Of a stretch of DNA of 21,543 nucleotides, positions 5,008 through 19,950 are shown in pieces. Position 1 is the stretch's first letter. Each line of letters starts with the position of its first letter. The position numbers were made by a program, and so were the translations under genes. The notes under the pieces are model-generated. The model did no database searches and had not been told where the DNA came from. It saw nothing but the letters and a program-made list of their open reading frames with translations. This stretch comes from a virus: IMG/VR virus record IMGVR_UViG_3300028925_008157, positions 1 to 21,543 of that record, one strand, 5' to 3'.

Positions 5008-6737
5008 TGCCAGACCGCTCCGACATATCGCCCCTCTCAATTACTGATGGTAAAATCAGTAAGGAGGCGAAGATCAACCCAACCAAGTTGGCTCCAGCCA
5101 CTTCGGGTCAGGTGTTGATTGCTGGAACGGATGGTAAATTCAGGCCGGGTAATCTCGTAACAACTTCCAGCGGCGACACCGTTGCACAAGGCCCGGCTGG
5201 AGCTAGTGGTGCGACTGGATCACAGGGGGCAACTGGAACCACCGGAGCCGCAGGCACGGCTGGATCGGATGGAACCAATGGAACAAATGGACTCCAAGGA
5301 GATGCCGGAACCAATGGAACCAACGGAACCAATGGAACCAACGGAACCAATGGACTCCAAGGAGATGCCGGAACCAACGGAACCAATGGAACCAATGGAA
5401 CAAATGGACTCCAAGGAGATGCCGGAACCGATGGCACCGATGGCACCGATGGCACCGATGGCACCGATGGCACCGATGGCACAAACGGAACCAACGGCAC
5501 AAACGGAACCAACGGCACGAATGGATCAGACGCCACCGTCACGGCGACCAGCGTGGATGACGCCTTGCACGGTGCGGACACAACCACATTCGGATTCGTT
5601 AAGCGAGATGCCGACAACTCCCACACGATTGATACGACCACATATTCTGCCAGTGGCCACACCCACGATGACAGGTACTATACTGAAACCGAGCTAGACG
5701 TTTCATTGGCGGCTAAATCAGGGACGGGCCACGCCCATGATGCGATGGATAGTGGGAATAGCTACGCCACTGGATTTGTCCCCGCTGGAAGTGTCACACA
5801 CAGCGACACCTATTTGCGAAAAGATGGAACATGGGGAACTCCCGTGGATACCAACACCGACACCAACACCACATACGCAAGCAGCGACTTTGACCATGAT
5901 GCACTGACTAACTTTGAAACCAACGAGCATATTGATTGGACTGGGGCAAGTGCAGGAACAGTCCACGCATCTAATTACACCAACACAACCTATTCAGCAG
6001 GAAACAGCGGATTGGTTCCAGCGGCGGGTAGCGCGGGGCAGTTCCTAAAGCACGATGCTTCGTGGGGAACCCCGCCCGACACCACCGCGAATGAGACGAT
6101 CACGTTGGGCGGAGATGTTAGCGGGTCAGGGACAACATCAATTGATTGCACGGTGGATGACGACTCCCACAATCACGCAATAGGGACGATTACCGGAGTC
6201 TTAAATGCTAGCGCAGGAGCGGGGTCGGCTGGAAAACTGATTAAGCTAGCAGCAGATGGTTACATTGACGGCTCAATGCTGGATAGCTCGGACATTTCGT
6301 TTAATGACTTAGACGACCTCCCCAGCACGTTCACCCCAACGATTGACGATGCCAGCGCATTAACCACCGATGTGTGGAGTGCGTCCAAGATAATTTCATA
6401 TCTGGTTTCGTTTTACGCCACACTATCCAACGGGTTCTCCGCCCATAAATACACTCGGACAATTACATGGGGAACGGATGACGGGGCGCACGTTACTTTT
6501 ACTGGGTCTGGGGCAGCGGAAGTAGCTACGGTAACCCACAGTCGTGGAACAGCATTTATCACGTTATCCATTATTGATGTAAGTGGGTCAATCGCAGAAC
6601 CCGGAGCGAATGGGTTTGTTGATTTGGATGCGCTTATTACGGTAGTTAGTGTGGACGATGACACTATTAAACTAGGCATCGCTTCGGGGGCGGGTGTATC
6701 AACAGGGGATGTGTATAAACTAACCGTTATTGGATGA
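5007..6737 (+). CDS. Collagen-like tail fibre protein (576 aa)
   Basis: The N-terminal 60 residues share the short fibre repeat of the preceding protein and may be the attachment part. Residues 62-174 are an unbroken Gly-X-Y series (GPAGASGATGSQGATG, then many GTN and GTD triplets with three GLQGDA inserts), a phage collagen-like shaft expected to form a triple helix. Further on come modules common in phage fibres: GHTHDDRYYTE (217-227), two copies of a W-G-T-P element (YLRKDGTWGTP at 270 and FLKHDASWGTP at 347), and DHDALTNFETNEHIDW (296-311). The last 100 residues are Val/Thr/Asp-rich and probably form the distal tip. Start ATG 5007 overlaps the previous stop, and the final TGA overlaps the next ATG. 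The receptor is unknown. Confidence 0.85.
   Translation: MPDRSDISPLSITDGKISKEAKINPTKLAPATSGQVLIAGTDGKFRPGNLVTTSSGDTVAQGPAGASGATGSQGATGTTGAAGTAGSDGTNGTNGLQGDAGTNGTNGTNGTNGTNGLQGDAGTNGTNGTNGTNGLQGDAGTDGTDGTDGTDGTDGTDGTNGTNGTNGTNGTNGSDATVTATSVDDALHGADTTTFGFVKRDADNSHTIDTTTYSASGHTHDDRYYTETELDVSLAAKSGTGHAHDAMDSGNSYATGFVPAGSVTHSDTYLRKDGTWGTPVDTNTDTNTTYASSDFDHDALTNFETNEHIDWTGASAGTVHASNYTNTTYSAGNSGLVPAAGSAGQFLKHDASWGTPPDTTANETITLGGDVSGSGTTSIDCTVDDDSHNHAIGTITGVLNASAGAGSAGKLIKLAADGYIDGSMLDSSDISFNDLDDLPSTFTPTIDDASALTTDVWSASKIISYLVSFYATLSNGFSAHKYTRTITWGTDDGAHVTFTGSGAAEVATVTHSRGTAFITLSIIDVSGSIAEPGANGFVDLDALITVVSVDDDTIKLGIASGAGVSTGDVYKLTVIG
5262..5528 (+). repeat. In-frame 9-bp tandem repeats coding Gly-Thr-Asn/Asp
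   Basis: Within the collagen-like fibre gene the units GGAACCAAY (Gly-Thr-Asn) and GGCACCGAT (Gly-Thr-Asp) repeat many times. A 27-base block beginning AATGGACTCCAAGGAGATG occurs three times, at 5286, 5349 and 5403, spaced 63 and 54 bases apart, both multiples of 9. Copies of one amino-acid triplet use nearly identical codons in blocks, as expected from recent slippage or unequal recombination. Length changes here would preserve the frame and alter shaft length. Confidence 0.9.
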
Positions 6738-7093: not shown

Positions 7094-7901
7094 AGTAGCA
7101 GCCCCGCCCCCAAGAAAATATGGGGAGGAAATGAAATCGACCCTCCAAGCACAAGTGGATATGGCTCCACAATTGTATGGCGCGGAGGAAGCGTGGCGCG
7201 GCAAATACGCCCAGCTAGACATGGACATCGCCAACCAGATGACTCCACAACTGCTGGACTTGTATGAGTCCTCGCAGCGTCGGCTTGGCACAATGGATCG
7301 TGAGCAGCTTGATCTCCAGCGGGGAGGCGACATTGAGGCGATTGAAAAATATGGAGGCCGAGCGAGGGAAGCACTGGACGCCGCCAATCCAGAACAGGCC
7401 GCACTATTAAAGGAGCTAAATGCCCAAGCAATGGGCGACCTCCAACTGGGCGGACAACTAAATGCTGGCGAGCGGCGAACCATTAACCAATCGGCCCGTG
7501 GCGCACAAGCCGCCCGTGGGTTTGGTTACGGAATAAATGATGCCGCCATTGAGTCGTGGGCGAACTTGCAGGGCAGCGAACAAAAGCGGCAGCAACGACA
7601 GGGTTTCGCCCAATCAATGGTTGGCATGAATCAGGCGACTCAAGCCGATCCATTTATGGCGGTTTTGGGTAGGCCAAGTTCCATGAACCCAATGATGTCT
7701 GGGGGCGTGGTTGGTCAAGCTGGAGGCTTTAATCCCGGCGCAATGTTTAGTCCAGAATCGCAATATGCTGGCGACATTTATAACCAGAATTATCAAGGCG
7801 AAATGGCGGCTCGAACGGCAAGCGCGAAAAACCGGGCATCAATGATTGGTGCTGGAATGCAAGCGATGGGTTCGGCGGCTGGCGGCGGTGGTAAAATGTA
7901 A
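7083..7901 (+). CDS. Probable internal virion (DNA-ejection) protein, small subunit (272 aa)
   Basis: The chain opens with a region I associate with podoviral internal proteins (PRKYGEEMKSTLQAQVDMAPQLY), continues as a long charged helix (residues 30-125) and ends in a low-complexity Gly/Ala/Met-rich tail (SMIGAGMQAMGSAAGGGGKM), suitable for membrane association during ejection. Segments such as RGAQAARGFGYGINDAA resemble proteins ejected with DNA in short-tailed phages. The position, directly before two larger probable ejection proteins, fits the order small-medium-large of internal core proteins (as in T7 gp14-gp15-gp16). The similarity is one of architecture; I cannot claim homology to T7. 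A weak AAAGG motif lies upstream of the ATG. Confidence 0.65.
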   Translation: MGTRVAAPPPRKYGEEMKSTLQAQVDMAPQLYGAEEAWRGKYAQLDMDIANQMTPQLLDLYESSQRRLGTMDREQLDLQRGGDIEAIEKYGGRAREALDAANPEQAALLKELNAQAMGDLQLGGQLNAGERRTINQSARGAQAARGFGYGINDAAIESWANLQGSEQKRQQRQGFAQSMVGMNQATQADPFMAVLGRPSSMNPMMSGGVVGQAGGFNPGAMFSPESQYAGDIYNQNYQGEMAARTASAKNRASMIGAGMQAMGSAAGGGGKM

Positions 7902-8296
7902 TGATTAAATTCCTCCACACAGGAGCCTCGAAAAAGAATGGTCGCGGTCGCGGCCTACGCTTATTTCGTTGGGGCAATCGTCAACTGGAACTGTGGTGGT
8001 TTCCAGCGGGTGAAGTTGTGGAGGATCACATACATAATCACGCAGTCGTTCGGTTGTTTTTTATATTCGGCAAGATGGTGTTTTGGAGTGCGCCAACTGG
8101 AACCAAACGGAAGACCTTGACTCATCTCGGCTCCACGTTGAGAATTCCAGTGGGAGTAGCTCATGGGGCGCAAATCCAACGCTCCAGCATATTCTTAACC
8201 TACGAAAAGTGGAATGATTCCCCCACCACAATTGCTCACGACATCGAATTTACCGACAGAACTATCCAACCTATATCGGGAGGTGTGTCTGCATGA
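7901..8296 (+). CDS. Cupin-fold protein of unknown role (131 aa)
   Basis: The ATG overlaps the previous stop (TAATG). The middle of the protein carries a cupin pattern: motif 1 is PAGEVVEDHIHNHAVV with metal-type histidines H43 and H45, followed by a glycine-bearing turn (FGK, near 57), and motif 2 is IPVGVAHGA with P83 and H88. This suggests a small metal-binding beta barrel. The usual motif 1 glutamate after the His pair is not obvious, so catalytic activity is uncertain. The N-terminus is basic (KKNGRGRGLRLFRW). It sits between internal virion genes, an unusual place for an enzyme; a minor virion protein or an auxiliary metabolic or regulatory protein is possible. The next gene overlaps its 3' end by 83 bases. 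Confidence 0.7.
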   Translation: MIKFLHTGASKKNGRGRGLRLFRWGNRQLELWWFPAGEVVEDHIHNHAVVRLFFIFGKMVFWSAPTGTKRKTLTHLGSTLRIPVGVAHGAQIQRSSIFLTYEKWNDSPTTIAHDIEFTDRTIQPISGGVSA

Positions 8297-8690
8297 TGAA
8301 TCTGCCTACACATTTCTCTGTCAATGGCACGAAACAGTTCATCAAATTGATGACATCGTGGATGAAGATGTGGGGTCGAAGGAGAAAACCATTGAGTGTT
8401 TTATTCGGCTCCACGAACTCTACGCAAATCCCTTTTACAGGAAACACGAAGACAGATTAAGCATGGTGGTAACGCTCGTAACAAATATGTATGCAGACTC
8501 GGTTGAGTGGGAGAAGTCCGACACCGAATGGAAACGTAAGTGGGCAGATTTTATGCGATTTGCTGGCAACGAAATGGCTTACGCAGTCGCATACATAGTT
8601 GGGGGTTGGACACATTTGAGGTTCATTAGTCGGATGTTTAGGGTTTTGTCCTACACCGACCACCACACAGAAAACCACGAACAAATTTAG
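8214..8690 (+). CDS. Conserved-looking all-helical phage protein with DDxxDxD motif (158 aa)
   Basis: The frame starts at ATG 8214 inside the cupin gene; no later ATG precedes the conserved-looking part, and a GTG at 8283 sits too close to a GGGAGG to be preferred. The protein is predicted to be helical. It contains HETVHQIDDIVDEDVG (residues 40-54) with an Asp-rich IDDIVDED at 45-52, then NPFYRKHEDRL (72-82) and YAVAYIVGGW (123-132). I recall similar small proteins in many tailed phages, with a WDDLIDxD-NPFY pattern and no known function. The motif recalls metal-binding Asp clusters of isoprenoid-synthase-type folds, but that link is speculative. A virion or assembly role is suggested only by its location between ejection protein genes. 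Confidence 0.7.
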   Translation: MIPPPQLLTTSNLPTELSNLYREVCLHDESAYTFLCQWHETVHQIDDIVDEDVGSKEKTIECFIRLHELYANPFYRKHEDRLSMVVTLVTNMYADSVEWEKSDTEWKRKWADFMRFAGNEMAYAVAYIVGGWTHLRFISRMFRVLSYTDHHTENHEQI

Positions 8691-8699
8691 GAGAACAAA

Positions 8700-9914
8700 A
8701 TGGCTGAATATTTTAGTAAATACAAAGGGCGAAACGGCCCAGCGATAGCCCCCGGCATTGTCCAGATGATGGGCAGCATTGGGGATGAGTATGCGAAGGG
8801 CATTAAGGGGTTATCCGAGGGACTGGAGAAGTACCGGCAGAACAAGGAAACCCGCGACATACTGGAGGAAACAGCCCTTAACGAATATGCGCGGCAACTT
8901 CCAGCCGAGGACGAGGAGGTTGATCCAATCAAGTCAGAATACTTGTCTCAATATGGGGAGAAAGTGCGCGACGCTTCGGATATGTCGATGGGTGAGTTGA
9001 AGGGGCTTGTGTCCTCGATGCAGACGGATCGAAATGAGATGCAGAAGCAGCAAGACTACACACTGCAAGAAAAACTTTACGGCCTAAAGGAGCGCGAAGT
9101 GGCTGCAACGGAGGCAAAAATAATCTCCGACAAAGCCACCGCAGACGATAGAAATGTCTTGGCTAGTGAAAAACAAATTGCTGACATCCTGTATAACGAC
9201 GGGCTTATAGGCATTGGCAAAGCCAAAAACGCACTGCTTGAAAACAAGCAATTCACCGAGCGGCTAGACGCACTGAATGCGGATGAACAAGCCGGTAAAA
9301 CTCTTGAACAAAACCAAACCGCCTTGAGAAAGCTGTGGGAAACTGACAACAGTTCAATTGGTAAAGAAGTGCAAGAGATGTTGAAGGGAGACTTCGATCC
9401 AGAAACAATTCGCCCGTGGATTGATACGAAGATAAAGGCAGCTTCGGATGCGGCGGTTAAAGAGTTAGGCAAGCCAGAACTCCACGACTATGACGGACAA
9501 AAGGTTCTCACCTACGGCAACACCATCGTCAAGCTGGATAACGTGGATGGCAAACTTCGGATGCAACCTGACAAGATGGAACAACTCCGAACAAGAATCA
9601 AGGAATCCATTGCAGAGATTATGTCTAGCATATCGTATGCGGCTGAACTCCAAAACAAAGGGAAGAAGGAAGATGCACCAACACCTATCCAAGACCAGAT
9701 AGATGCGTATAAAGAATACGACAAGGAATTGATAGACAAATACGGGCCAGACTCATCGACATCGGCAACAACGACTAGAGCGGGGGTTCCAGCTTCGTCA
9801 GAGAAAAAATACAGGGTTCAGACTCCAGATGGAAGAACCGCCATTGTTGCGGAAAGTAACCTTGAGCGGGCGAAAAAAGACGGCAACAAAGTCCTTGGTG
9901 AAGTTGGGGAATAG
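8700..9914 (+). CDS. Probable internal virion protein, medium subunit, coiled-coil rich (404 aa)
   Basis: Translation starts at ATG 8700 behind a clear AGGAGA five bases upstream. The N-terminus (about residues 1-45) has Gly and hydrophobic residues (GPAIAPGIVQMMGSIGDEYAKGIKGL) and could insert in or touch a membrane. Residues 45-330 are mostly charged helix with heptad-like stretches, rich in Lys, Glu and Gln. The C-terminal 36 residues form a different, beta-containing element (KKYRVQTPDGRTAIVAESNLERAKKDG). Its location between a small and a very large internal protein gene, and its stop only two bases before the next ATG, fit the middle member of an ejection-protein set. No enzymatic motif is visible. 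Confidence 0.6.
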   Translation: MAEYFSKYKGRNGPAIAPGIVQMMGSIGDEYAKGIKGLSEGLEKYRQNKETRDILEETALNEYARQLPAEDEEVDPIKSEYLSQYGEKVRDASDMSMGELKGLVSSMQTDRNEMQKQQDYTLQEKLYGLKEREVAATEAKIISDKATADDRNVLASEKQIADILYNDGLIGIGKAKNALLENKQFTERLDALNADEQAGKTLEQNQTALRKLWETDNSSIGKEVQEMLKGDFDPETIRPWIDTKIKAASDAAVKELGKPELHDYDGQKVLTYGNTIVKLDNVDGKLRMQPDKMEQLRTRIKESIAEIMSSISYAAELQNKGKKEDAPTPIQDQIDAYKEYDKELIDKYGPDSSTSATTTRAGVPASSEKKYRVQTPDGRTAIVAESNLERAKKDGNKVLGEVGE

Positions 9915-9916
9915 CG

Positions 9917-12900
9917 ATGGCTGAAGAATCATACTTAACCTACGAAGACCCGCCTAAAGATGATTCGTACTTAACCTACGAAGACCCGCCTAAAGATGAT
10001 TCGTACTTAACTTACGAGCAGTCCGAGGACGGCGAGGCCGCGCCCACCGAAACACAACTGGAAAAAGACGTTGAAAAGTACGGGGCGTGGAATGCCGCGC
10101 CTCCACCTTCCAAGTGGGGTGAATTCAAGCATTGGTTTAGAAAAGAACTGACTCCGTTCATTGGCCCGTCAGAGCGGCAGATTGCGGAGGAAGGCGTTAT
10201 GTGGACTGACCCAGTTACCCAGCAGCGGGGAATAATGTACAAGCCGCTTGCCGACAAGTTCACCAAGCAGGGACTTTTCAACACCCCCCTCATAGGCGAC
10301 CTCAAAGAGAAAGTCGGCATTGACGCCAAAGACCTAGAGGAATTTGGAGTGTCGGAAGAATGGGCGAAGGGGATTGCTGGGACGCAGCGCGCCATACTTG
10401 GTGCGACGGAACAACTCACAAATCCACTGGTGGCGATGGCTGCGGTGGCCTCTGGCGGTGCGCCGTTGTTAGGCAAAATCTTGGCTGGCGGGTTTAGCGT
10501 TCACATGGCGTCGGGTCTTCCAGACGTAAAGAAGGCTTTTGATGACGCGGTTGAAGCGGGCGACACGCAAGCCGCAGCGGAAGCCCTGACGGGTGGAGTG
10601 TTGCAAGCATTTTTCGCATACAAGGCTGGACGCCATGCTACCCAAGGGGGTGGTGCGAAAATCAAGGCGCTCCACCAAAAGACACTGCAACCCGAATTAA
10701 AAAAACTTTTAGCGCACCAGATTAAAACCGAATACACCGGCCCACAGCTTCGCGTCATATTCAGCCGGGTGAACAAAAACCAAGGCACTCCAGCGGAAGT
10801 GGAGATGGTGAAGTTCATCAACGGCGAAATGAAGCCGGGGGTTTTAGTCAAGAAAGGGGCCAAGACCACTTTCACCTCTGCCGAGGCGAAGATGTTCAAG
10901 AACAGCAAGGCTTGGAAAAACTTTCTCGGAATTGAAGACGTTAAGGTTCCAGTGGCAACCCGGCTCATCTCGGAAAAAGCCGGGATGAAAGCCCCGGTAG
11001 AAGCCCCGCCATCTGTCGGAAAATATCTCAAGCTGGAGGAAGCGCGGGTTCCAGTGATGCTTGCCGAATCCAAGATGGGAGTTCCAGCGGGAACCAAGAC
11101 TTCATCCATGCCGCCGAAGGTGGAGGAACCCGATTGGTTTGGTAAGGCAATTGGCCCCGTCAAGAATGTTTACAAGAAATGGCTCACCTCCAAGGGGCAA
11201 CTTAAATTCACCGACCCAACAAGCGGCCTCACCGTGGATGTTTATACCCGCAAGGGCGAAATGGGAGGCAACATTTTATCCGAACTCAAGCATCTGGATA
11301 ACGTCAGCGCAAAACTTCGCCGCGCCGAAAAGAAATCTTACGGCAAGAACAACCCCAAGCCAGAAGACTTAATGGAGCGTATGAACTCCTTCTTGGCAAA
11401 CGAGAAGGTGGACTTGCCGAAGCCAATCCAGAAAGTCTTGACCGAGATGCGGACACACAAAAAGGGGTTGTCCAAAGAAATCCAAGGGCTAGTCACTGGA
11501 GAACTGAAAGCCACCATTGGCGACAACATGGAAGTGTACCTTAATAGGTCGTATGAGATTTTTGATAACCCGAAATTTAAGGAGAAGATTCTAAAGGGCA
11601 AGAAGGTTGAAGGCTCGCAATACGAGGTTGCAAAGGAATTCCTAGCCAACGAACGACAAGCTGATCTCATTGCCGAGGCCCAAAAGAAAGTGGAAGCTGG
11701 TGAACTGGCCGAGCATCAGATAGACGGGTATGTAGATCGTCGCTTGTCTGGCGAGATGGAGGCCATGTTGAATGTGGCGGGGCGCGACATCTTTGAAGCC
11801 ATACCGTCTTCGGGGCGAGTGCTGGATGTGGTCAAGAAGCGGAAGAACATTCCAGTTGAAATCCGTGAACTTTGGGGGGAGTACAAAGACCCCTATGTGA
11901 ACTATGCCCGCACCGTCACCAAGATGTCGCAATTCATTGAGACAACCAAGTTCTACCAAGAATTGCGCGAGGCTGGGCTGAACAGATTTTTGTGGGAAAA
12001 ACCTTTTGAGGGATTCTCGGAACAGATTGGTGGCGGCGAAAGATTTGCGGTAAAGAAGGATGGGAGTCTAGGCAAGAAAGTAGCCAGTAACCCACGACTC
12101 GCCCCAATCGACGGACTCTACACGACCAAGGAACTGGCCAAAGCCTTCACCTCGCTGGATGAACTCGGCCCACTGGGAACGGGGCTGGAACGAGCGTTAA
12201 TGGTTCCAACAGCGGCAGCGAATATAAGTGCTACGGTTTTGAATCATGTTACTCAAAATCGAAACTTTCACGGCGGCGGCGTAATGTCGATGGCGAACAA
12301 CCGGCTTTCACCAAAACAAACCTATAAAGCGTTAAAAACAATCGGCGCAGACATAATTAAATTAGATAGCAAAGCGCAGCTTGAGAAAATTCAAGAATAC
12401 GCGAAGCTGGATTTCTTCGACCAAGCCGCCGTGCCAACTGAAATGTTAGCCAGCCTCAAGGATGTGCTTGGTAAAGACAGAAGCGCGTGGTTGGAAGACC
12501 TCTCCAGTGGCCGAATCAACTTGAGTAAGGGGGGACGGGTTTTAGCAAAAGCCGGTAAGTTACCATTTGAAGTTTATCAAGGCGTGGACACCGCGTTTCG
12601 GATTGCCAACTTTGAGGTTGAACTGGCTCGGTATTCCAAGGCTCTCAAGATTGATTCCAAGAACCCACAACTTCGCCAAGATGTTGCGAATATCATCAAG
12701 GACACTTACCCGACATATTCCAGAGTGCCGCTGGCGATTAAGGCGTTGCGCCGGTTCCCGTACTTGGGGTCATTTATCAGTTTTCCAGCGGAGATAATCC
12801 GCACAACCAAAAACACTTATTCCTTGTCAATGAAAGAACTGGCTACGCCGGGCCTCCGCGAAATCGGGGCCAAACGGTTTGCGGCCTTGACAGGAACCTT

Positions 12901-13852
12901 AATACTCCCCGAAATCGCAACGAGGGTGGTCAACAATCTATCTGGAATTAGTTCAGAAGAAAAAAAAGCCATACGCCGGTTTGTCCCGCCGTGGTCGAAA
13001 AACGGCAACCTAAAAATCTCAAAGGAGGAAGACGGTCACTACAATTATTTCGATCTAAAATACAGCGATCCCTACTCCTACCTCAAGGAACCTCTGGTCG
13101 CGGCAATGCGAGCCGGGGGCGAACCCGACGTACATTACTGGCAAGCCTTCGGCACACTTATCCAGCCATTCACGGATGAGAAGATATTTGCGTCCAAGCT
13201 ATTCGATGTGACTCGAAACATCACGGAATCTGGACGCCCGGTGTGGGACGAAAACGATTCACTGGACGAGCGCACAACCAAGATACTCACTCACCTTGGG
13301 GAAGCGATCACACCGGGCAGTGCCAAGTCCATCAACCGTTTGTATAAAGCGGCCAACGACCAGAAAGGCGACTTCGGGCGCGAGTACGATTTAGGTTATG
13401 AAGCCTTCGCGCAATTTGGGTTCCGCACATCCAAGCTGGACATTGGGAACAGCCTTGCCATCCACAAGCTGCCGCAATCGAAGCGCAAAATAAATGGCTA
13501 CTCTGGAGACTTCACAAGAGAGATGCGCCGAACACGGCTGGATGACGCACAACAACTGGAACTTTACACGAAGGTAAACGAAGACCGATTCAAGGAATGG
13601 CAAACCGTCCACCGCGATATTCAAGCGGCCCAAACCCTTGGAGTGGGGTTGGTGACGGTGGAACTTGCCTTGCAGAAAAGCGGATTTAACAAGGACGAAC
13701 GAGAAGCCTTACGCAATGGAACCTTTATCCCATACTGGCCAAGCGATGAAAAAGCCTTGGAAATCCAGATAGAAGGGCGAACCTTCAACCGAGTCAACTT
13801 ACTTGGCCGCTACACAGAACTACTAGCCTCCCCGCTCCTAAATGAAAACTAA
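9917..13852 (+). CDS. Large internal virion / polyvalent protein, probable DNA-ejection protein (1311 aa)
   Basis: The protein begins with nearly three copies of a 12-residue repeat (SYLTYEDPPKDD). A hydrophobic, Gly/Ala-rich region at about residues 150-200 (LVAMAAVASGGAPLLGKILAGGF) could be membrane active. Long charged helices follow from about 250 to 750. Residues about 884-1010 contain a block (VYQGVDTAFRIANFEVELARYSKAL, FPYLGSFISFPAEIIRTTKN) that resembles large polyvalent-protein-associated domains of phages (LPD38 type, from memory). The size, location and neighbours fit the largest ejection protein of a podovirus, comparable in position to T7 gp16. I see no lytic transglycosylase signature, so peptidoglycan cutting is not supported. 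No recognisable domain lies in the last 200 residues. Confidence 0.75.
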   Translation: MAEESYLTYEDPPKDDSYLTYEDPPKDDSYLTYEQSEDGEAAPTETQLEKDVEKYGAWNAAPPPSKWGEFKHWFRKELTPFIGPSERQIAEEGVMWTDPVTQQRGIMYKPLADKFTKQGLFNTPLIGDLKEKVGIDAKDLEEFGVSEEWAKGIAGTQRAILGATEQLTNPLVAMAAVASGGAPLLGKILAGGFSVHMASGLPDVKKAFDDAVEAGDTQAAAEALTGGVLQAFFAYKAGRHATQGGGAKIKALHQKTLQPELKKLLAHQIKTEYTGPQLRVIFSRVNKNQGTPAEVEMVKFINGEMKPGVLVKKGAKTTFTSAEAKMFKNSKAWKNFLGIEDVKVPVATRLISEKAGMKAPVEAPPSVGKYLKLEEARVPVMLAESKMGVPAGTKTSSMPPKVEEPDWFGKAIGPVKNVYKKWLTSKGQLKFTDPTSGLTVDVYTRKGEMGGNILSELKHLDNVSAKLRRAEKKSYGKNNPKPEDLMERMNSFLANEKVDLPKPIQKVLTEMRTHKKGLSKEIQGLVTGELKATIGDNMEVYLNRSYEIFDNPKFKEKILKGKKVEGSQYEVAKEFLANERQADLIAEAQKKVEAGELAEHQIDGYVDRRLSGEMEAMLNVAGRDIFEAIPSSGRVLDVVKKRKNIPVEIRELWGEYKDPYVNYARTVTKMSQFIETTKFYQELREAGLNRFLWEKPFEGFSEQIGGGERFAVKKDGSLGKKVASNPRLAPIDGLYTTKELAKAFTSLDELGPLGTGLERALMVPTAAANISATVLNHVTQNRNFHGGGVMSMANNRLSPKQTYKALKTIGADIIKLDSKAQLEKIQEYAKLDFFDQAAVPTEMLASLKDVLGKDRSAWLEDLSSGRINLSKGGRVLAKAGKLPFEVYQGVDTAFRIANFEVELARYSKALKIDSKNPQLRQDVANIIKDTYPTYSRVPLAIKALRRFPYLGSFISFPAEIIRTTKNTYSLSMKELATPGLREIGAKRFAALTGTLILPEIATRVVNNLSGISSEEKKAIRRFVPPWSKNGNLKISKEEDGHYNYFDLKYSDPYSYLKEPLVAAMRAGGEPDVHYWQAFGTLIQPFTDEKIFASKLFDVTRNITESGRPVWDENDSLDERTTKILTHLGEAITPGSAKSINRLYKAANDQKGDFGREYDLGYEAFAQFGFRTSKLDIGNSLAIHKLPQSKRKINGYSGDFTREMRRTRLDDAQQLELYTKVNEDRFKEWQTVHRDIQAAQTLGVGLVTVELALQKSGFNKDEREALRNGTFIPYWPSDEKALEIQIEGRTFNRVNLLGRYTELLASPLLNEN
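9932..10018 (+). repeat. 36-bp tandem repeat coding an N-terminal 12-residue repeat
   Basis: Two identical 36-base copies (9932-9967 and 9968-10003), each beginning TACTTAACCTACGAAGACCC, are followed by a truncated third copy up to 10018 with a C-to-T change. They encode the repeat YLTYEDPPKDDS at the extreme N-terminus of the 1311-residue virion protein. Near-perfect nucleotide identity suggests a recent duplication. Confidence 0.9.
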
Positions 13853-13857
13853 TTCCA

Positions 13858-14277
13858 GTGGACACAACAACGCTAGGCACAATTGGGGAACGTCTCGTCG
13901 AGGCCGAGTTATTGAAACTCGGTTTTTGTGTCGCCCGCCCAGCAGTGGACATTGACGGGTACGATTTGCTTGCGGGAACTAATTCCCGCGAATACCATAG
14001 ACTCCAGATCAAGACTTGTCGGATACCCGCCGAGTACCGGGGGAGTTACGGCTACCGATACACCACGCTCAAAAACAAAAAATCAGATTATTTCATATTC
14101 GTCTGCCTAATGCACAACTCATTCTACATCGTACCAACCGCCCTAACAGCCGCTTCGATTCGCCTCTCTGGAGACGGCAGCGGGCAGTCCGAGGTAGAAA
14201 AGTTTTTTGGCGCGTGGCACATATTAAAACCAACGCACCCCGATCATGCCTCCACGCAAGTTCTTGATGCACAGTAG
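13858..14277 (+). CDS. PD-(D/E)XK endonuclease-like protein next to attP (139 aa)
   Basis: The open frame starts at GTG 13858, five bases after the stop of the large virion gene; no ATG is available upstream of the conserved motifs. The motif order is that of the PD-(D/E)XK fold: GTIGERLVEAELLKLGF (E11), DIDGYDLL with D36, and LQIKT with Q50 and K52. This combination is closest, from memory, to the group I intron-type PD-(D/E)XK endonucleases (I-Ssp6803I-like), a family also found free-standing. The protein likely cuts DNA with metal ions. It lies between the last virion gene and attP, so after integration it would be at the prophage end. A defence, homing or resolvase-type function is possible. 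A strong Shine-Dalgarno is lacking. Confidence 0.75.
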   Translation: MDTTTLGTIGERLVEAELLKLGFCVARPAVDIDGYDLLAGTNSREYHRLQIKTCRIPAEYRGSYGYRYTTLKNKKSDYFIFVCLMHNSFYIVPTALTAASIRLSGDGSGQSEVEKFFGAWHILKPTHPDHASTQVLDAQ

Positions 14278-14298: not shown

Positions 14299-14343
14299 CT
14301 GGGGGTCAGGAGGTCGAGAGTTCAAATCTCTCCATCCCGACCA
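14299..14343 (+). other. attP: Phage attachment site core (attP): 3' part of a tRNA-Pro(GGG) gene
   Basis: The bases read as the 3' part of a tRNA: anticodon loop CTGGGGG (U33 and anticodon GGG, 14299-14305), 3' anticodon-stem strand TCAGG, variable loop AGGTC, T arm GAGAG-TTCAAAT-CTCTC, acceptor strand CATCCCG, discriminator A and encoded CCA (14341-14343). Upstream bases (ATGGA) do not pair with TCAGG, and no CGGGATG acceptor 5' strand or D arm is present, so this is not a complete tRNA gene. Such a fragment next to a tyrosine integrase gene is the hallmark of attP, restoring the host tRNA after integration. Two further bases (GA) at 14297-14298 also fit the expected host stem. Confidence 0.85.
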
Positions 14344-14449: not shown

Positions 14450-15634
14450 ATGACACCCGAAAACCGCCCTCCCACACCTGACGATCTGCCACTGTTTCAT
14501 TTAGATAAGGGCAAGGTGCGTTTCATGTTTAGGGGGCGACACTACTCTTTGTTCAGACCGTGGTTGGGTGGGAACTACTACATAAAAATCCAGCGGCTTG
14601 GATTTCGCAAAACCACATCCCTCCACACCGACGATCCGAAGCGGGCCGTGGCAATGGCGATAGGTGTGATCGACTATTTCCTCTCTGGAATTGATCCAGA
14701 GGCGTTGAAGGAGCCGTCCCACGCCACCGCTGATTTGGTGACCCGCTCGTACCGGGTTATTGCGCTGCGCCACGGGCTGAAGGAGGTTACGATTGGCGGG
14801 AACATTTCCTCGCTCAAGAAAATCATTGGGCGGCGCAAGTCGCTTCGCAGCTTTCCGATTTCCAGACTCACCGGGAAACTCGTCCGCGAGTTCATTGATT
14901 TTGAACTGGATTTAATCGCAGGGCAGGGCGAGGAAGCTCGGCAGCGCAAACTCCGCAGCATTCAAGGGGTATTGAAACAGGCAAAATCCATATTTAAGAA
15001 ATCATTTCACTCGCGGTACGAGGATGCGGGAATCCACCTCGGCAACATCGAGGGGTTCATGCTCGAACGGGGCGAGACTCCAGTGTTGGTGACTAAAGTC
15101 CCGCTGGAGGATGAGGTGGTGGAGGTGCTGGACGCGAAGATGGAGAAGTTGGGTGAGGTGCGGCCAGATCGCTACGCCGCCTATTTGCTGGCCAAGTCCA
15201 CGTTGCGTCGGGGCGAAATCCAGCGGGCTAAATGGGACTGGATACAAATGAAGAAGGGCCATCCGCATATCGTGATGTCTGCGGATCAGAAGGGGAAGAA
15301 GGCCACCTCCATTCCGCTCGACCCCACGATCTACGCCGCCCTCCAGCAGTGGTACAAGTTAACCGAGGACAAGGAATACATCCTGCCAGAAGACGGGTGG
15401 GAGGGCGAACGCTGCGGCTATTTTATGAAGGAACTGGACAAGTGGCTGCGCGACAAGGGCGGACTCAAAACCGACCACACGTTCCACGAACTCCGCGCCC
15501 ACACACTCCACACGATCCGAGAGAAGTATGGGCTGGAAGTCGCAGCCCGCGTGGGGCGGCATTCGGACTCATCCATCACGGCCCAGTGCTACGCCGGGGA
15601 GAAGAAAATCCCCGTGGGCTTTAACTTAAATTAA
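14450..15634 (+). CDS. int: Tyrosine site-specific recombinase (phage integrase), 394 aa
   Basis: The protein integrates and excises the phage by recombining attP with the host attB. The C-terminal catalytic domain holds the full set of active residues: R253 in STLRRGEI, a beta-hairpin lysine near K281 (DQKGKKATSIPL), H346-x-x-R349 in FHELRAH, H371 in GRHSD, and nucleophile Y381 in QCYAGEKK. The central part (about 90-200) fits a SAM-like core-binding domain, and the N-terminal 85 residues contain a beta-rich part (KVRFMFRGRHYSLFRPWLGGNYYIKIQRLG) suitable as an arm-binding domain. H371 and Y381 are ten residues apart, one more than the usual nine. No clear Shine-Dalgarno precedes ATG 14450, and the upstream inverted repeat may regulate it. 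The tRNA fragment 107 bases upstream is its probable target. Confidence 0.96.
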   Translation: MTPENRPPTPDDLPLFHLDKGKVRFMFRGRHYSLFRPWLGGNYYIKIQRLGFRKTTSLHTDDPKRAVAMAIGVIDYFLSGIDPEALKEPSHATADLVTRSYRVIALRHGLKEVTIGGNISSLKKIIGRRKSLRSFPISRLTGKLVREFIDFELDLIAGQGEEARQRKLRSIQGVLKQAKSIFKKSFHSRYEDAGIHLGNIEGFMLERGETPVLVTKVPLEDEVVEVLDAKMEKLGEVRPDRYAAYLLAKSTLRRGEIQRAKWDWIQMKKGHPHIVMSADQKGKKATSIPLDPTIYAALQQWYKLTEDKEYILPEDGWEGERCGYFMKELDKWLRDKGGLKTDHTFHELRAHTLHTIREKYGLEVAARVGRHSDSSITAQCYAGEKKIPVGFNLN

Positions 15635-15635
15635 A

Positions 15636-15749
15636 ATGATGAAAAAAAGTGAAGAAAAAACTTGCATTGTGGGTGGTGAGAACTCACCCTCGCTCCAGTG
15701 CCGAACCATCGCCAATTTTCACAAAAACAATACTCTGGCAAGCCGATAG
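15636..15749 (+). CDS. Doubtful small ORF after integrase (37 codons)
   Basis: An ATG at 15636 (or the adjacent 15639) just after the integrase stop opens a 37-codon frame, beginning MMKKSEEKTC and ending at TAG 15747-15749. It covers the first of the three palindromes. The position would suit an excisionase, but the product has no helix-turn-helix or other motif that I can recognise, and the composition is not convincing. I list it only because the surrounding 180 bases otherwise have no gene. Confidence 0.15.
   Translation: MMKKSEEKTCIVGGENSPSLQCRTIANFHKNNTLASR
15675..15688. promoter_or_regulatory. Palindromic operator-like site 1
   Basis: GGTGAGAACTCACC is a 14-base near-perfect dyad: six-base arms are fully complementary around a central AA. 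It matches two further copies at 15765 and 15791. The site is 90 bases upstream of site 2 and lies in the only gap between the integrase gene and the RHH regulator gene. Binding by a dimeric regulator is the simplest reading. Confidence 0.6.
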
Positions 15750-15752
15750 TTT

Positions 15753-15804
15753 TTTATTTAGCCGGGTGGGAACCCACCTTTATTTAGCCGGGTGGGAACT
15801 CACC
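15753..15804. promoter_or_regulatory. Tandem 26-bp direct repeat with palindromic operator-like sites 2 and 3
   Basis: Two adjacent 26-base units start TTTATTTAGCCGGGTGGGAA and differ at only a few bases at the end. Each contains the 14-base palindrome seen at 15675: GGTGGGAACCCACC (15765-15778, perfect arms) and GGTGGGAACTCACC (15791-15804, one arm mismatch). Site 3 ends nine bases before the ATG of the RHH gene, so it could block transcription or ribosome access. Site 2 is followed by TTTATTT and could also act as a weak terminator hairpin. No convincing -35/-10 promoter pair was found here. Confidence 0.65.
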
Positions 15805-15813
15805 CAATCAAAA

Positions 15814-15999
15814 ATGAACGAACACAAGGAATACACCATACTGGTGAAACTAAATGCCAAGCACCGAAATCGCGCAAAAACACAAGCGCGGGTTCTCGGA
15901 ATTCGCTTGAGCGAACTCTACCGGCAAGCCCTGACCAGTGGGCTGAACGAAATCCAAGACGAAGACGCATTAGAGCGCATTAAAAACATTCCAGCATGA
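15814..15999 (+). CDS. Ribbon-helix-helix DNA-binding regulator (61 aa)
   Basis: The protein has the pattern of Arc/CopG-type regulators: a short strand with alternating residues (YTILVKL, residues 6-12), helix 1 (AKHRNRAKTQARVLG), a Gly-containing turn, and helix 2 (RLSELYRQALTSGLNEI). Such proteins bind DNA as dimers by inserting the paired strands in the major groove. The start ATG 15814 was chosen over one at 15649 because the added 55 residues do not look like protein and run through the palindrome array. No clear Shine-Dalgarno precedes the start. The three palindromes upstream are natural candidates for its own binding sites, suggesting autoregulation and possibly control of the integrase/early-gene boundary. 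No CI-like repressor is visible in this window. Confidence 0.75.
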   Translation: MNEHKEYTILVKLNAKHRNRAKTQARVLGIRLSELYRQALTSGLNEIQDEDALERIKNIPA

Positions 16000-16393: not shown

Positions 16394-16524
16394 AGAACAA
16401 GAAAGTCTGCCCGCAGTGGACGAACGATTCCAGCGGAGACACAAGGGCCGCTGACGAGGGAACAATGCTCCACGATGTCATGGAAAAATGGGCGACGGCA
16501 ATTAAGGAGGGCGATTTCAAGTGA
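16354..16524 (+). CDS. N-terminal piece of a split RecB/Cas4-like nuclease (56 aa)
   Basis: This frame starts at ATG 16354 after a good AGGAG (16341-16345) and ends at TGA 16522-16524. It contains the start of phage DUF2800/RecB-like nucleases: HAKHSPSQLKNKKVCP, with the first cluster-type cysteine C19, and TRAADEGTMLHDVMEKW, matching the conserved A.EGT..H region. The rest of the nuclease lies in the -1 frame and begins at GTG 16521, overlapping this stop by four bases (GTGA). The piece lacks catalytic residues and would be useless alone. It either works as a separate subunit with the downstream product or is joined to it by -1 frameshifting; a sequencing error or a recent indel is the alternative. 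Confidence 0.75.
   Translation: MPEEHAKHSPSQLKNKKVCPQWTNDSSGDTRAADEGTMLHDVMEKWATAIKEGDFK
16504..16511 (+). promoter_or_regulatory. Internal Shine-Dalgarno for the C-terminal nuclease ORF
   Basis: AAGGAGGG lies within the coding sequence of the 56-codon frame and ends nine bases before GTG 16521. It is among the strongest ribosome sites in the window and decides for GTG 16521 as a true start; a TAA at 16503-16505 excludes any upstream extension in that frame. A similar internal site can also stimulate -1 frameshifting. Confidence 0.7.
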
Positions 16525-17447
16525 GCTACCAACTCCCAACTCTCACAGACGAACACGCCACGCTGATCGGGTGGTGCATGAAGAGGGTCGAGCCTCGACT
16601 GCGGCAAGCTGACCAAACCCACATCGAGTGTCGGCTGGAGATTCCAGACATAACGTGGGGAACCAGTGACGTTGTGCTGCTAACGGGCGACCACATCACG
16701 CTCATTGATTACAAGTTTGGCAAGTGGATTGTTGATGAGCCGAAGAACAATCTGCAAGCCAAAGCATACACGCTGGGCGCATTTCACAAATTTCCAGAAG
16801 CCAAAACTGCCGAGTTCATTTTCCTCACGCCCCGGCACGAACTGGAACAGTCCTCGGTGTTTAAGCGCGGCGAGGCGATGGGTTGGACGGACGAGTTCAA
16901 AACCATTGTTGCGCGAGCAGATGACCCCTCCAGTCCGTACCGGCCCGACTCGGAAAATTGCCTTTTTTGCGGGACGAAAGCCCGCTGCCCTGAATTACAA
17001 AAACGCGCTATGGACATTGCAGAAGACTACGACGGGCTACTCCTACCAGAGTCAGCAAAGATGACGGCCCTCACCAACCCAGCCCAACTCCAGCGGGCCT
17101 TGGATGTGGCGTCTATCATGGAACGATGGGCGAAGAACGTCCGCAACACCGCGCTCGAACTGCGCCTCGAAGGCGTGGAGATACCGGGGTATGAACTCAA
17201 GCAAACCGCCGGGAACAGAAAAATAAAAGACGTTGCCCGCGCATGGGACGCCCTCAAGGAAATCGTTCCACAAGAGGAATTTCTGGAGGCGTGTTCCATC
17301 ACCCTCGGAACGCTGGAGAAGAAGCTCAAGGAGCAAGCCCCTCGCGGGCAGAAACAAGAATTTGCCAAATCCACGCTCGATGTTCTGGATACTCTAGGAT
17401 TGGTCGAGCGTGGGAGGGACAAAACATACCTAACGAAACAACGATGA
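16521..17447 (+). CDS. RecB/Cas4-like PD-(D/E)XK nuclease, C-terminal part (308 aa, DUF2800-like)
   Basis: The core holds the catalytic set of RecB-type nucleases: THIECRLE, WGTSDVVLL (D50), ITLIDYKFGKW (D63, K65), and NNLQAKAYTLG (Q79). Later comes a C-x2-C-x5-C group in NCLFCGTKARC (C147, C150, C156), as in Cas4/AddB-type iron-sulphur nucleases, whose fourth cysteine is N-terminal; here that cysteine is in the separate upstream frame. The remaining 140 residues are helical (DVASIMERWAKNVRNTAL), typical of DUF2800. The start is GTG 16521 with an internal AAGGAGG. The stop overlaps the ATG of the next gene (ATGA). In this neighbourhood of candidate SSB and polymerase, a recombination or end-processing role is likely. 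Confidence 0.85.
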   Translation: MSYQLPTLTDEHATLIGWCMKRVEPRLRQADQTHIECRLEIPDITWGTSDVVLLTGDHITLIDYKFGKWIVDEPKNNLQAKAYTLGAFHKFPEAKTAEFIFLTPRHELEQSSVFKRGEAMGWTDEFKTIVARADDPSSPYRPDSENCLFCGTKARCPELQKRAMDIAEDYDGLLLPESAKMTALTNPAQLQRALDVASIMERWAKNVRNTALELRLEGVEIPGYELKQTAGNRKIKDVARAWDALKEIVPQEEFLEACSITLGTLEKKLKEQAPRGQKQEFAKSTLDVLDTLGLVERGRDKTYLTKQR

Positions 17448-18151
17448 CTGAAAAAAAGAAAAAAGGCAGCGGCAACGCTGGAAGCACCACGGCACTAGCT
17501 ATCCCGCAACCGGCGGCTGGCTCTGTCAGTGGAGAAATCGAAACAAGCGACTTGGTTGTGCCGTCTCTCAAGATGGCCGCTAAAACTGGCGAACTGGGCG
17601 AGCTATTCATGCCCGGTTCACTGGTGCTGAATGCCGAGTATGCGCTGTACGGGGCGCGAGCCGACGAGGCCGAGAAGAAGAAGGAAGACCCAGTGTGGAT
17701 CACGGTTCTCCACGCCAAGAAATCCTACTACGAACACACCGAGTATGGGTCTGGCGAGATGCCCAAAACTGCCGACACACTCGACGAAGTGCTGGCTCAA
17801 GGCGGCTCACTCGAATGGGTGGACGGCGCGAAGCCAACATGGAACCCGCAAGTCTGCTGCACGGTGCTGATTCGAGGGGACGACGAAGCCTACTTCCCGT
17901 GGGACTTCGGCAAACACCGCTACGCTATGGCTCGCTGGATTCTCGCCAGTTTCAGCGCATACAACAATGCCGCCAAACCCATCCTAACTGCTGCGGCACT
18001 AAACCTCCGCGCTGGGCTGGAATACGGGAGTTGGGGGCTAACCTCGGCCCTCAAGAAAAAGGGGCAGAATAGTTGGTACATTCCAGTGCTGACTACCGGG
18101 GAAAAGAACGACGAAAAATTCGCCTCATGGGCGCGTGAACTTACCCATTAA
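17444..18151 (+). CDS. Possible ssDNA-binding / replication accessory protein (235 aa)
   Basis: The start ATG 17444 overlaps the previous stop; an extension upstream in the same frame would run through the nuclease gene and reads as shadow sequence. The N-terminus is a Lys/Gly/Ser-rich flexible stretch (TEKKKKGSGNAGST), followed by VVPSLKMAAKTGEL and a middle part with many aromatic residues (WITVLHAKKSYYEHTEYG), and ends with ALKKKGQNSWYIPVLTTGEKN. I associate this layout with phage proteins found between RecB-like nucleases and polymerase genes and considered ssDNA-binding. No classic OB-fold signature is readable by eye. Co-translation with the nuclease and the polymerase supports a replication or recombination role. 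Confidence 0.55.
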   Translation: MTEKKKKGSGNAGSTTALAIPQPAAGSVSGEIETSDLVVPSLKMAAKTGELGELFMPGSLVLNAEYALYGARADEAEKKKEDPVWITVLHAKKSYYEHTEYGSGEMPKTADTLDEVLAQGGSLEWVDGAKPTWNPQVCCTVLIRGDDEAYFPWDFGKHRYAMARWILASFSAYNNAAKPILTAAALNLRAGLEYGSWGLTSALKKKGQNSWYIPVLTTGEKNDEKFASWARELTH

Positions 18152-18152
18152 C

Positions 18153-18159
18153 GGAGGGG
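18153..18159 (+). promoter_or_regulatory. Shine-Dalgarno for the DNA polymerase gene
   Basis: GGAGGGG immediately after the preceding stop lies nine bases before ATG 18169. It is too close to a TTG at 18160, which would only add three residues, so ATG 18169 is taken as the start. Confidence 0.6.
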
Positions 18160-18168
18160 TTGTGGGTA

Positions 18169-19950
18169 ATGGGGTGGCGGCGGGGCTTCATGGTTTCCTC
18201 GTCGTCACCTCAACTCGCGAGAGATATGATCGCAATTGATTTCGAGACATACTACGACGCCGACTGCACCGTGAAGGGACTCGGCCCCGATGCCTATTGT
18301 CGGCATCCTAAATTCGACCCCTACATGGTGTCTCTCCACGGTGAGGGCATTGACTATGTTGGGCCGACTCAAGCTGCGCCTTGGTGCAGTATTCCAGCCG
18401 ACGCCTCGTTCGTGGCTCACAATGCGGCGTTCGATTCCACGGTGTTCGAGGCGGCACAGCGCATGGGCTACATTCCCGGCGACCTAACTCCAACGTGGGA
18501 CTGCACCGCCAATCTCGGCGTGTATATACAATGTCCGCGCAATCTGAAGGGGTTCGCCGAGCAAATGCTGGGGGTGAAGCCCGACAAGGCGGTTCGGGAC
18601 AAGATGAAAGGCAAGCTGCCCTCCGACCTCGACGACGCCGAACTCAAAGCCCTCATCGAATATGCCCGCTACGATGCCGTTTATTGTCACGAACTCTGGA
18701 ACACCTACGAGAAATATTGGCCATATAAGGAACGAGTTTTAGCTCGCCACACCATGACCAGCGGCCAGCGCGGGATTCACATTGACAAGCCAAAACTGGA
18801 TGCCGGGGTTGAAGTTCTTTATGAGATCAAGGAAGCGGCGGGGAAGCTAGTCCCGTGGAGCGCGGACGAGGAACCAATCAACTCCCTCAAACAACTCAAA
18901 ATTTATTGCACCAAGCAGGGCATACCCGCCCCAGCTAACACCAACCAAAACGAACCAGAATGCGCCGAGTGGGAGGCCGAGTACGGTGACAAATATCCAG
19001 TCGTGGCTGCGCTGCGCGATTGGCGCAAATCCAACCGGCTACTCCGCTTATTCCAGACCGTTAATACTCGACTGCGCGATGATGACTCGATGCCGTTTGG
19101 CCTCAAATACTTTGGCGCAACTCTCACGGGCCGATGGTCAGGAGACACGGGCCTCAATATGCAGAATCTTCCACGGGGCGAAAACTTCGGCATTGATACT
19201 CGAAGCCTTTTCATTCCACGGGCCGGTAAGAAGTTCATAATTTGTGATCTGGCCCAAATCGAACCCCGCGTCATGGCGTGGCTCACTAACAACACTGAAA
19301 TGATGGACTATGTTCGCAAGGGCGAGGACATATACACGGCCCATGCGCTTTCCACGATGGGCCTTGACAAGGTGGACAAACAAGCCCGGCAACTCGCCAA
19401 AATCCGCGTTCTCGGACTGGGCTATGGGTGTGGGGCGGCTCGATTCAAACAAATCGCCGACAATTGGGGCGTGAGCCTCTCCAGTGACGAAGCCGAACAC
19501 ACGGTTAAGGATTATCGGCGCACGAATCCAGAAATCCTCAAGTTTTGGAGGCAACGGGAACGAGAATTTAAGAACGACGTAAACGAAAACCACTACTACA
19601 AGCTGCCAAGTGGTCGCCACATTAGCTATTTCAATGTGCGATATAAAAGTGACCAGTGGTTTGCCTCCATCACGCGGGGCGCAACTCCACGGCACTGGTA
19701 TGGTGGGAAGCTCGTCGAGAATGTTGTTCAAGCCACGGCCCGCGACATTTTCGCCGAGCATTACTACACAATTATCCGCGCCGGGTTCGAGGTTTTATGG
19801 ACAGTCCACGATGAAATTATTGTGGAGGTGGATGAGGACGATAAACAGGCCCGCGCCGAAATTCAGAATCTAATGAGCCGCACTCCAGATTGGATCAAGG
19901 GGTGTCCTGTCGCAGCCGAAGCGCACGAAGCGAAAGCATATACGAAATGA
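18169..19950 (+). CDS. polA: Family A DNA polymerase with 3'-5' exonuclease domain (593 aa)
   Basis: The N-terminal proofreading domain shows all three exonuclease motifs: IAIDFETYY (D24, E26), VAHNAAFDSTVFE and YARYDAVYCHELW. The polymerase domain shows motif A FIICDLAQIEPRVMAWL (D360, E365), motif B RQLAKIRVLGLGYG and motif C WTVHDEIIVEV (H547, D548, E549). There is no 5'-3' exonuclease domain, as in T7-type phage replicative polymerases; with 593 residues it is somewhat short. It synthesises phage DNA in the cytoplasm. The position equivalent to Phe762 of E. coli Pol I is Leu (L415), a variant reported often in viruses with a temperate lifestyle. Residue numbers use ATG 18169. The stop overlaps the next ATG. 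Confidence 0.96.
   Translation: MGWRRGFMVSSSSPQLARDMIAIDFETYYDADCTVKGLGPDAYCRHPKFDPYMVSLHGEGIDYVGPTQAAPWCSIPADASFVAHNAAFDSTVFEAAQRMGYIPGDLTPTWDCTANLGVYIQCPRNLKGFAEQMLGVKPDKAVRDKMKGKLPSDLDDAELKALIEYARYDAVYCHELWNTYEKYWPYKERVLARHTMTSGQRGIHIDKPKLDAGVEVLYEIKEAAGKLVPWSADEEPINSLKQLKIYCTKQGIPAPANTNQNEPECAEWEAEYGDKYPVVAALRDWRKSNRLLRLFQTVNTRLRDDDSMPFGLKYFGATLTGRWSGDTGLNMQNLPRGENFGIDTRSLFIPRAGKKFIICDLAQIEPRVMAWLTNNTEMMDYVRKGEDIYTAHALSTMGLDKVDKQARQLAKIRVLGLGYGCGAARFKQIADNWGVSLSSDEAEHTVKDYRRTNPEILKFWRQREREFKNDVNENHYYKLPSGRHISYFNVRYKSDQWFASITRGATPRHWYGGKLVENVVQATARDIFAEHYYTIIRAGFEVLWTVHDEIIVEVDEDDKQARAEIQNLMSRTPDWIKGCPVAAEAHEAKAYTK

What the first reader, a model, noticed from the sequence alone, without database searches (positions are those of the whole stretch)
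14299..14343. attP core identical to a tRNA-Pro(GGG) 3' part, proving an unintegrated phage form
The tRNA 3' half (anticodon loop through CCA) is present without its 5' half and sits between late genes and the integrase gene. In an integrated prophage those gene blocks would be at opposite ends, so this DNA is a virion, circular or permuted form. It also predicts the host target: a tRNA-Pro(GGG) gene with anticodon arm CCTGA-CTGGGGG-TCAGG and encoded CCA, which can be used to find the host.
Basis: partly seen in the sequence, partly recalled or inferred. Interest (0 to 1): 0.6.

Follow-up and report, generated by a model that had tools for sequence, protein, structure and literature searches.

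The report
Phage attachment site copying tRNA-Pro half
The 45 bases are the copied 3' half of a proline tRNA gene that a marine phage would use to insert itself into a host chromosome; the matching tRNA gene occurs in one genus of marine Verrucomicrobiota, so this is an ordinary attachment site that usefully points to the host.

Summary
Window 14299-14343 is a tRNA-Pro(GGG) 3' half (anticodon loop to CCA) without its 5' half. It lies just after a PD-(D/E)XK gene that follows late genes, and just before a tyrosine integrase gene. Three related phage contigs carry it at the same place (43-44/45 identical; 2 variable columns of 45, against about a third in the flanks). A fourth relative with an open integrase frame lacks it.

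The host prediction works. A slightly relaxed pattern hits 4 of about 85,000 bacterial and archaeal species genomes, all in one genus of marine Verrucomicrobiota, each inside a complete tRNA-Pro(GGG) with the predicted CCTGA-CTGGGGG-TCAGG arm and CCA. The window copy differs by one T-loop base, so 'identical' is slightly wrong. In one of these genomes a different element sits in this tRNA gene and left a displaced 3' half starting in the anticodon arm, which supports the crossover site. No prophage of this phage was found.

Best reading: an attP core on an unintegrated (circular, concatemeric or permuted) phage molecule. 'Proving' is too strong: a tandem prophage junction would look the same, and integration was not observed. 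New member of a well-known kind.

The parts
14299..14343 (+). attP core: tRNA-Pro(GGG) 3' half, anticodon loop through CCA
   Evidence: 44/45 to complete host tRNA-Pro in L007-L010
14299..14305 (+). CTGGGGG anticodon loop: inferred 7-bp overlap (strand-exchange) region
   Evidence: Shared by all four attP copies and the host tRNA; the left boundary of identity varies only outside it; the displaced half in host genome G008 starts 3 bases before it. Inference.
14324..14324 (+). single difference from the host tRNA (A for G at tRNA position 57)
   Evidence: one mismatch in G006-G009
14450..15634 (+). tyrosine integrase, 394 aa
   Evidence: PF00589 4.3e-13, phrog_1 2.1e-20; R, HELR, GRH and Y motifs read directly
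13858..14277 (+). PD-(D/E)XK nuclease-like gene immediately upstream of the core
   Evidence: PF11645 7.2e-9; 87-88% identical and in the same place in four relatives
9917..13852 (+). large virion structural protein (late gene)
   Evidence: phrog_22602 2.9e-39
15814..15999 (+). small ribbon-helix-helix-like ORF downstream of the integrase, possible regulator
   Evidence: conserved from this ATG in L056; no Pfam hit; fold assigned by eye
16521..19950 (+). early replication block: DUF2800/exonuclease gene and family A DNA polymerase

Best explanation
The 45 bases are the attP core of a phage of marine Verrucomicrobiota. The adjacent tyrosine integrase would recombine it with the host tRNA-Pro(GGG) gene, exchanging strands in the 7-bp anticodon loop CTGGGGG. 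The host keeps a working tRNA because its own 5' half is joined to the phage-borne 3' half; the host's own 3' half is displaced to the far prophage end. Because late genes lie directly upstream of the core and the integrase directly downstream, the sequenced molecule is most likely an unintegrated circular, concatemeric or permuted form. Shown: core, integrase, synteny, matching host tRNA. Inferred: crossover position, integration by this phage, physical form of the molecule.
For: Exact position and anatomy. Same core in L001-L003 between the PDDEXK gene and the integrase, 2 of 45 columns variable against 23/60 and 44/134 in the flanks; the two substitutions should be neutral for the tRNA (purine 57; G-U for G-C at the inner end of the acceptor stem). 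The relaxed pattern hits only 4 genome contigs species, all Verrucomicrobiota of one genus, all complete tRNA-Pro(GGG) with the CCTGA arm. The site is a used attB: in G008 a complete tRNA with phage-like T stem GAGAG/CTCTC is followed by about 1.7 kb of inserted DNA, then a displaced 3' half (tRNA bases 31-78) with T stem GCGAG/CTCGC, then the dksA-like gene that directly follows the tRNA in G010. Anticodon-loop crossovers are one of the standard tRNA subsites (PMC4383910). Gene order around the core is conserved in four related contigs.
Against: No prophage related to this phage in the host genus (21 genomes) or in 293 sampled genomes of the order, and no viral contig with the host tRNA 5' half. 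Relative L004 has the integrase frame but lacks the core, so the core is not indispensable. Phage G+C is about 52% against roughly 55-62% on host contigs that hold the matching tRNA or its close variant.
Confidence: 0.92

Rival explanations
1. The window is a junction inside a tandem prophage array, which also places late genes, attP-like core and integrase side by side.
For: The gene order would be the same as in a free molecule. Tandem islands at tRNA genes exist (PMC4383910 counts 125).
Against: Four related contigs show the same order with phage genes on both sides of the junction, and not even a single integrated copy of this phage was found in the genomes searched.
Confidence: 0.04
2. 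A refinement, not exclusive of the best explanation: integration happens but is transient, without classical lysogeny, as in T7-like cyanophages whose integrase and tRNA-Leu attP work but give no stable lysogens.
For: No prophage found in the host clade; a relative lacks the core yet keeps the integrase frame; precedent PMC8776855.
Against: A small RHH-like gene with three palindromic sites next to the integrase could be a repressor; the genomes per clade are few and are incomplete MAGs.
Confidence: 0.35
3. The block is a captured tRNA remnant with no attachment function.
For: The core is missing in L004.
Against: Strong conservation of the core against the flanks, location next to the integrase in every copy, and a matching, used attB in hosts.
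Confidence: 0.03

Closest known systems
attP cores of T7-like cyanophages P-SSP7 and S-TIP37 (tRNA-Leu), PMC8776855
   Same: Integrase plus a tRNA-derived attP core on a marine phage, matching the host tRNA
   Different: Target here is tRNA-Pro(GGG) of Verrucomicrobiota; the core lies upstream, not downstream, of the integrase; a T7-like genome plan was not shown for this phage
uvMED group G11, marine phages assigned to Verrucomicrobia by integrase/att match, PMC3861242
   Same: Host phylum inferred from an attP core matching a host tRNA
   Different: G11 was matched to single-cell genome SCGC AAA300-K03 and has about 45% G+C; relatedness to this phage was not tested directly; the window integrase has no match in the phages collection
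tRNA-targeted integrative islands with anticodon-loop crossover (Islander class A), PMC4383910
   Same: Displaced 3' tRNA-gene fragment and regenerated tRNA mark the ends
   Different: Those are integrated islands; here only the free phage side is seen for this phage

Membership tests
tRNA-targeting tyrosine-integrase attP | tRNA 3' half without 5' half, reaching the gene's 3' end | tested here: met
tRNA-targeting tyrosine-integrase attP | adjacent tyrosine recombinase gene with conserved catalytic residues | tested here: met
   motifs read directly from the translation
tRNA-targeting tyrosine-integrase attP | matching complete tRNA gene (attB) in a plausible host | tested here: met
   44/45 in four genomes of one genus
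tRNA-targeting tyrosine-integrase attP | integrated copy with attL and attR for this phage | tested here: inconclusive
   none found, but the genomes are drafts and absence is weak evidence; a different element in G008 does show both junctions at this tRNA
tRNA-targeting tyrosine-integrase attP | recombination activity | not testable with these tools
   needs an assay
unintegrated phage molecule | phage genes on both sides of the core | tested here: met
unintegrated phage molecule | circular closure or terminal redundancy | tested here: inconclusive
   No end-to-end repeat among the repeats listed for the 21.5-kb window; probably a genome fragment

The most novel reading that the evidence does not exclude
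A lineage of mainly lytic marine Verrucomicrobiota phages keeps a tRNA-Pro attP and integrase for transient integration, and elements using this site repeatedly swap the 3' half of the host tRNA, spreading an element-borne T-stem allele (GAGAG/CTCTC) into the host population.
Probability: 0.2. Interest if true: 0.5.

Novelty: new member of a known kind. Interest (0 to 1): 0.3.

Why it matters
It gives a testable host for an uncultured phage group: one genus of marine Verrucomicrobiota, for which few phages are known, and a precise site (tRNA-Pro(GGG), next to a dksA-like gene) where integrated copies can be sought by PCR or in reads.

Tried and rejected
Exact 45-mer in genome contigs and viral contigs: no hit, hence the relaxed pattern. 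Rfam scan of the core: no useful tRNA hit for a half gene, so the empty scan near the L004 integrase says little about a replacement core there. ARAGORN's 81-nt tRNA-Pro call in L002 was rejected: it runs into the end of the upstream nuclease gene and its acceptor stem has mismatches. The integrases found in the order are 26-32% identical and were not taken as copies of this phage. The DNA polymerase hit in G008 (28% identity) was taken as a host polymerase. The tRNA fragments in G223 and G124 were not used because of masked or contig-end sequence.

Full report
Observation. The 45 bases at 14299-14343 are as described and read as the 3' half of a tRNA-Pro(GGG) from anticodon loop to CCA. ARAGORN finds no complete tRNA in the window. 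Upstream lie a PD-(D/E)XK gene and a 1311-residue virion structural protein; downstream lie a tyrosine integrase, an exonuclease-like gene and a family A DNA polymerase.

Relatives. The integrase brings in four other IMG/VR contigs (78-80% identity). Three (L001-L003) carry the core in the same place. Within the 45 columns only two vary, against 23 of 60 and 44 of 134 in the flanks, and identity to the window is 96-98% in the core but 71-77% outside. Both substitutions should keep a working tRNA (A for G at position 57; U for C opposite G7). L004 lacks the core apart from about ten bases, with the integrase frame kept; true deletion, assembly error and use of another site cannot be told apart. 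The gene order nuclease - core - integrase - exonuclease - polymerase is the same in the others.

Host. The exact 45-mer is in none of the 84,980 species genomes. A pattern shortened to 40 bases with three two-fold degenerate positions matches four genomes, all marine Verrucomicrobiota, and all four fall in one genus by the search tool's grouping. Each has a complete tRNA-Pro(GGG), CGGGATGTAGCGTAGCCTGGTTAGCGCGCCTGACTGGGGGTCAGGAGGTCGAGAGTTCGAATCTCTCCATCCCGACCA. The window differs from it by one base. In a sample of 293 genomes of the order only these four match the pattern.

The site is in use. In G010 the tRNA, with T stem GCGAG/CTCGC, is followed directly by a dksA-like gene. In G006 the tRNA with GAGAG/CTCTC is followed directly by the start of the same gene. 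In G008 a GAGAG/CTCTC tRNA is followed by about 1.7 kb, then a displaced 3' half (bases 31-78) with GCGAG/CTCGC, then the dksA-like gene. This is the pattern of an integrated element that replaced the host 3' half, with the boundary in the anticodon stem-loop. The element is not this phage: its ends and genes differ. G143 has a decayed displaced half before the dksA-like gene, with an upstream flank that resembles that of G008. G007 and G009 have other DNA after the tRNA. An unrelated viral contig, L100, begins exactly at base 31 of this tRNA and encodes a different integrase. The G006 site shows that GAGAG/CTCTC also occurs at an apparently empty site, so the exchange of halves is shown only for G008.

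Mechanism. Most likely the integrase exchanges strands in the anticodon loop CTGGGGG, the leftmost stretch shared by all copies; anticodon-loop crossover is one of the standard subsites (PMC4383910). This is inference, not assay. The host tRNA would stay functional because the phage supplies the 3' half.

Form of the molecule. Late genes and integrase on opposite sides of the core argue for a free, concatemeric or permuted molecule. A tandem prophage junction would look the same, so the word 'proving' is too strong. No prophage of this phage was found in 21 genomes of the genus or 293 of the order, but these are drafts. Marine T7-like cyanophages integrate at tRNA-Leu without stable lysogeny (PMC8776855), so lysogeny should not be assumed.

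Known or new. Assigning hosts to marine phages by integrase/att match to a tRNA is established, including one Verrucomicrobia case (PMC3861242). This is a new member of a known kind; the useful result is the host genus and the site.

Noticed in passing
window 15675-15804; L051 7989-8453: Three palindromic sites GGTGRGAACYCACC lie between the integrase and a small RHH-like gene (15675, 15765, 15791); relative L001/L051 has three GGTGAGG(A/T)CTCACC sites in matching places. Possible operators of a small repressor.
   Followed up: partly
L004 7872-7900: Relative with an open integrase frame lacks the tRNA-derived core, leaving ...GTTGACCCCCAACCATTTG...
   Followed up: partly
L041 12167-14003: 1.7-kb element with a TolB-like gene between tRNA-Pro(GGG) and a displaced 3' half in host genome G008; a direct repeat (GTTCTGACTTTTGGCAGAAGAAATGGCAGAAGC) lies near both ends.
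   Followed up: partly
L100 (reverse complement 1-52); L058 end: Unrelated viral contig starting exactly at base 31 of this tRNA-Pro, followed by a different integrase; host contig G262 ends four bases after its tRNA with the same GCTT, a possible attL.
   Followed up: partly
L101 3501-3541 (MW202444): Freshwater phage with an unannotated tRNA-Pro-like 3' half just downstream of its integrase.
   Followed up: no
window 7901-13852: Relatives L051, L053/L054 and L055 have about 5.7-5.9 kb without detected similarity to the 1311-aa virion protein where the window and L056 carry it: apparent late-gene replacement.
   Followed up: no
window 5198-5540: Array of 9-bp (collagen-like G-x-y) repeats in a probable tail fibre gene.
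   Followed up: no
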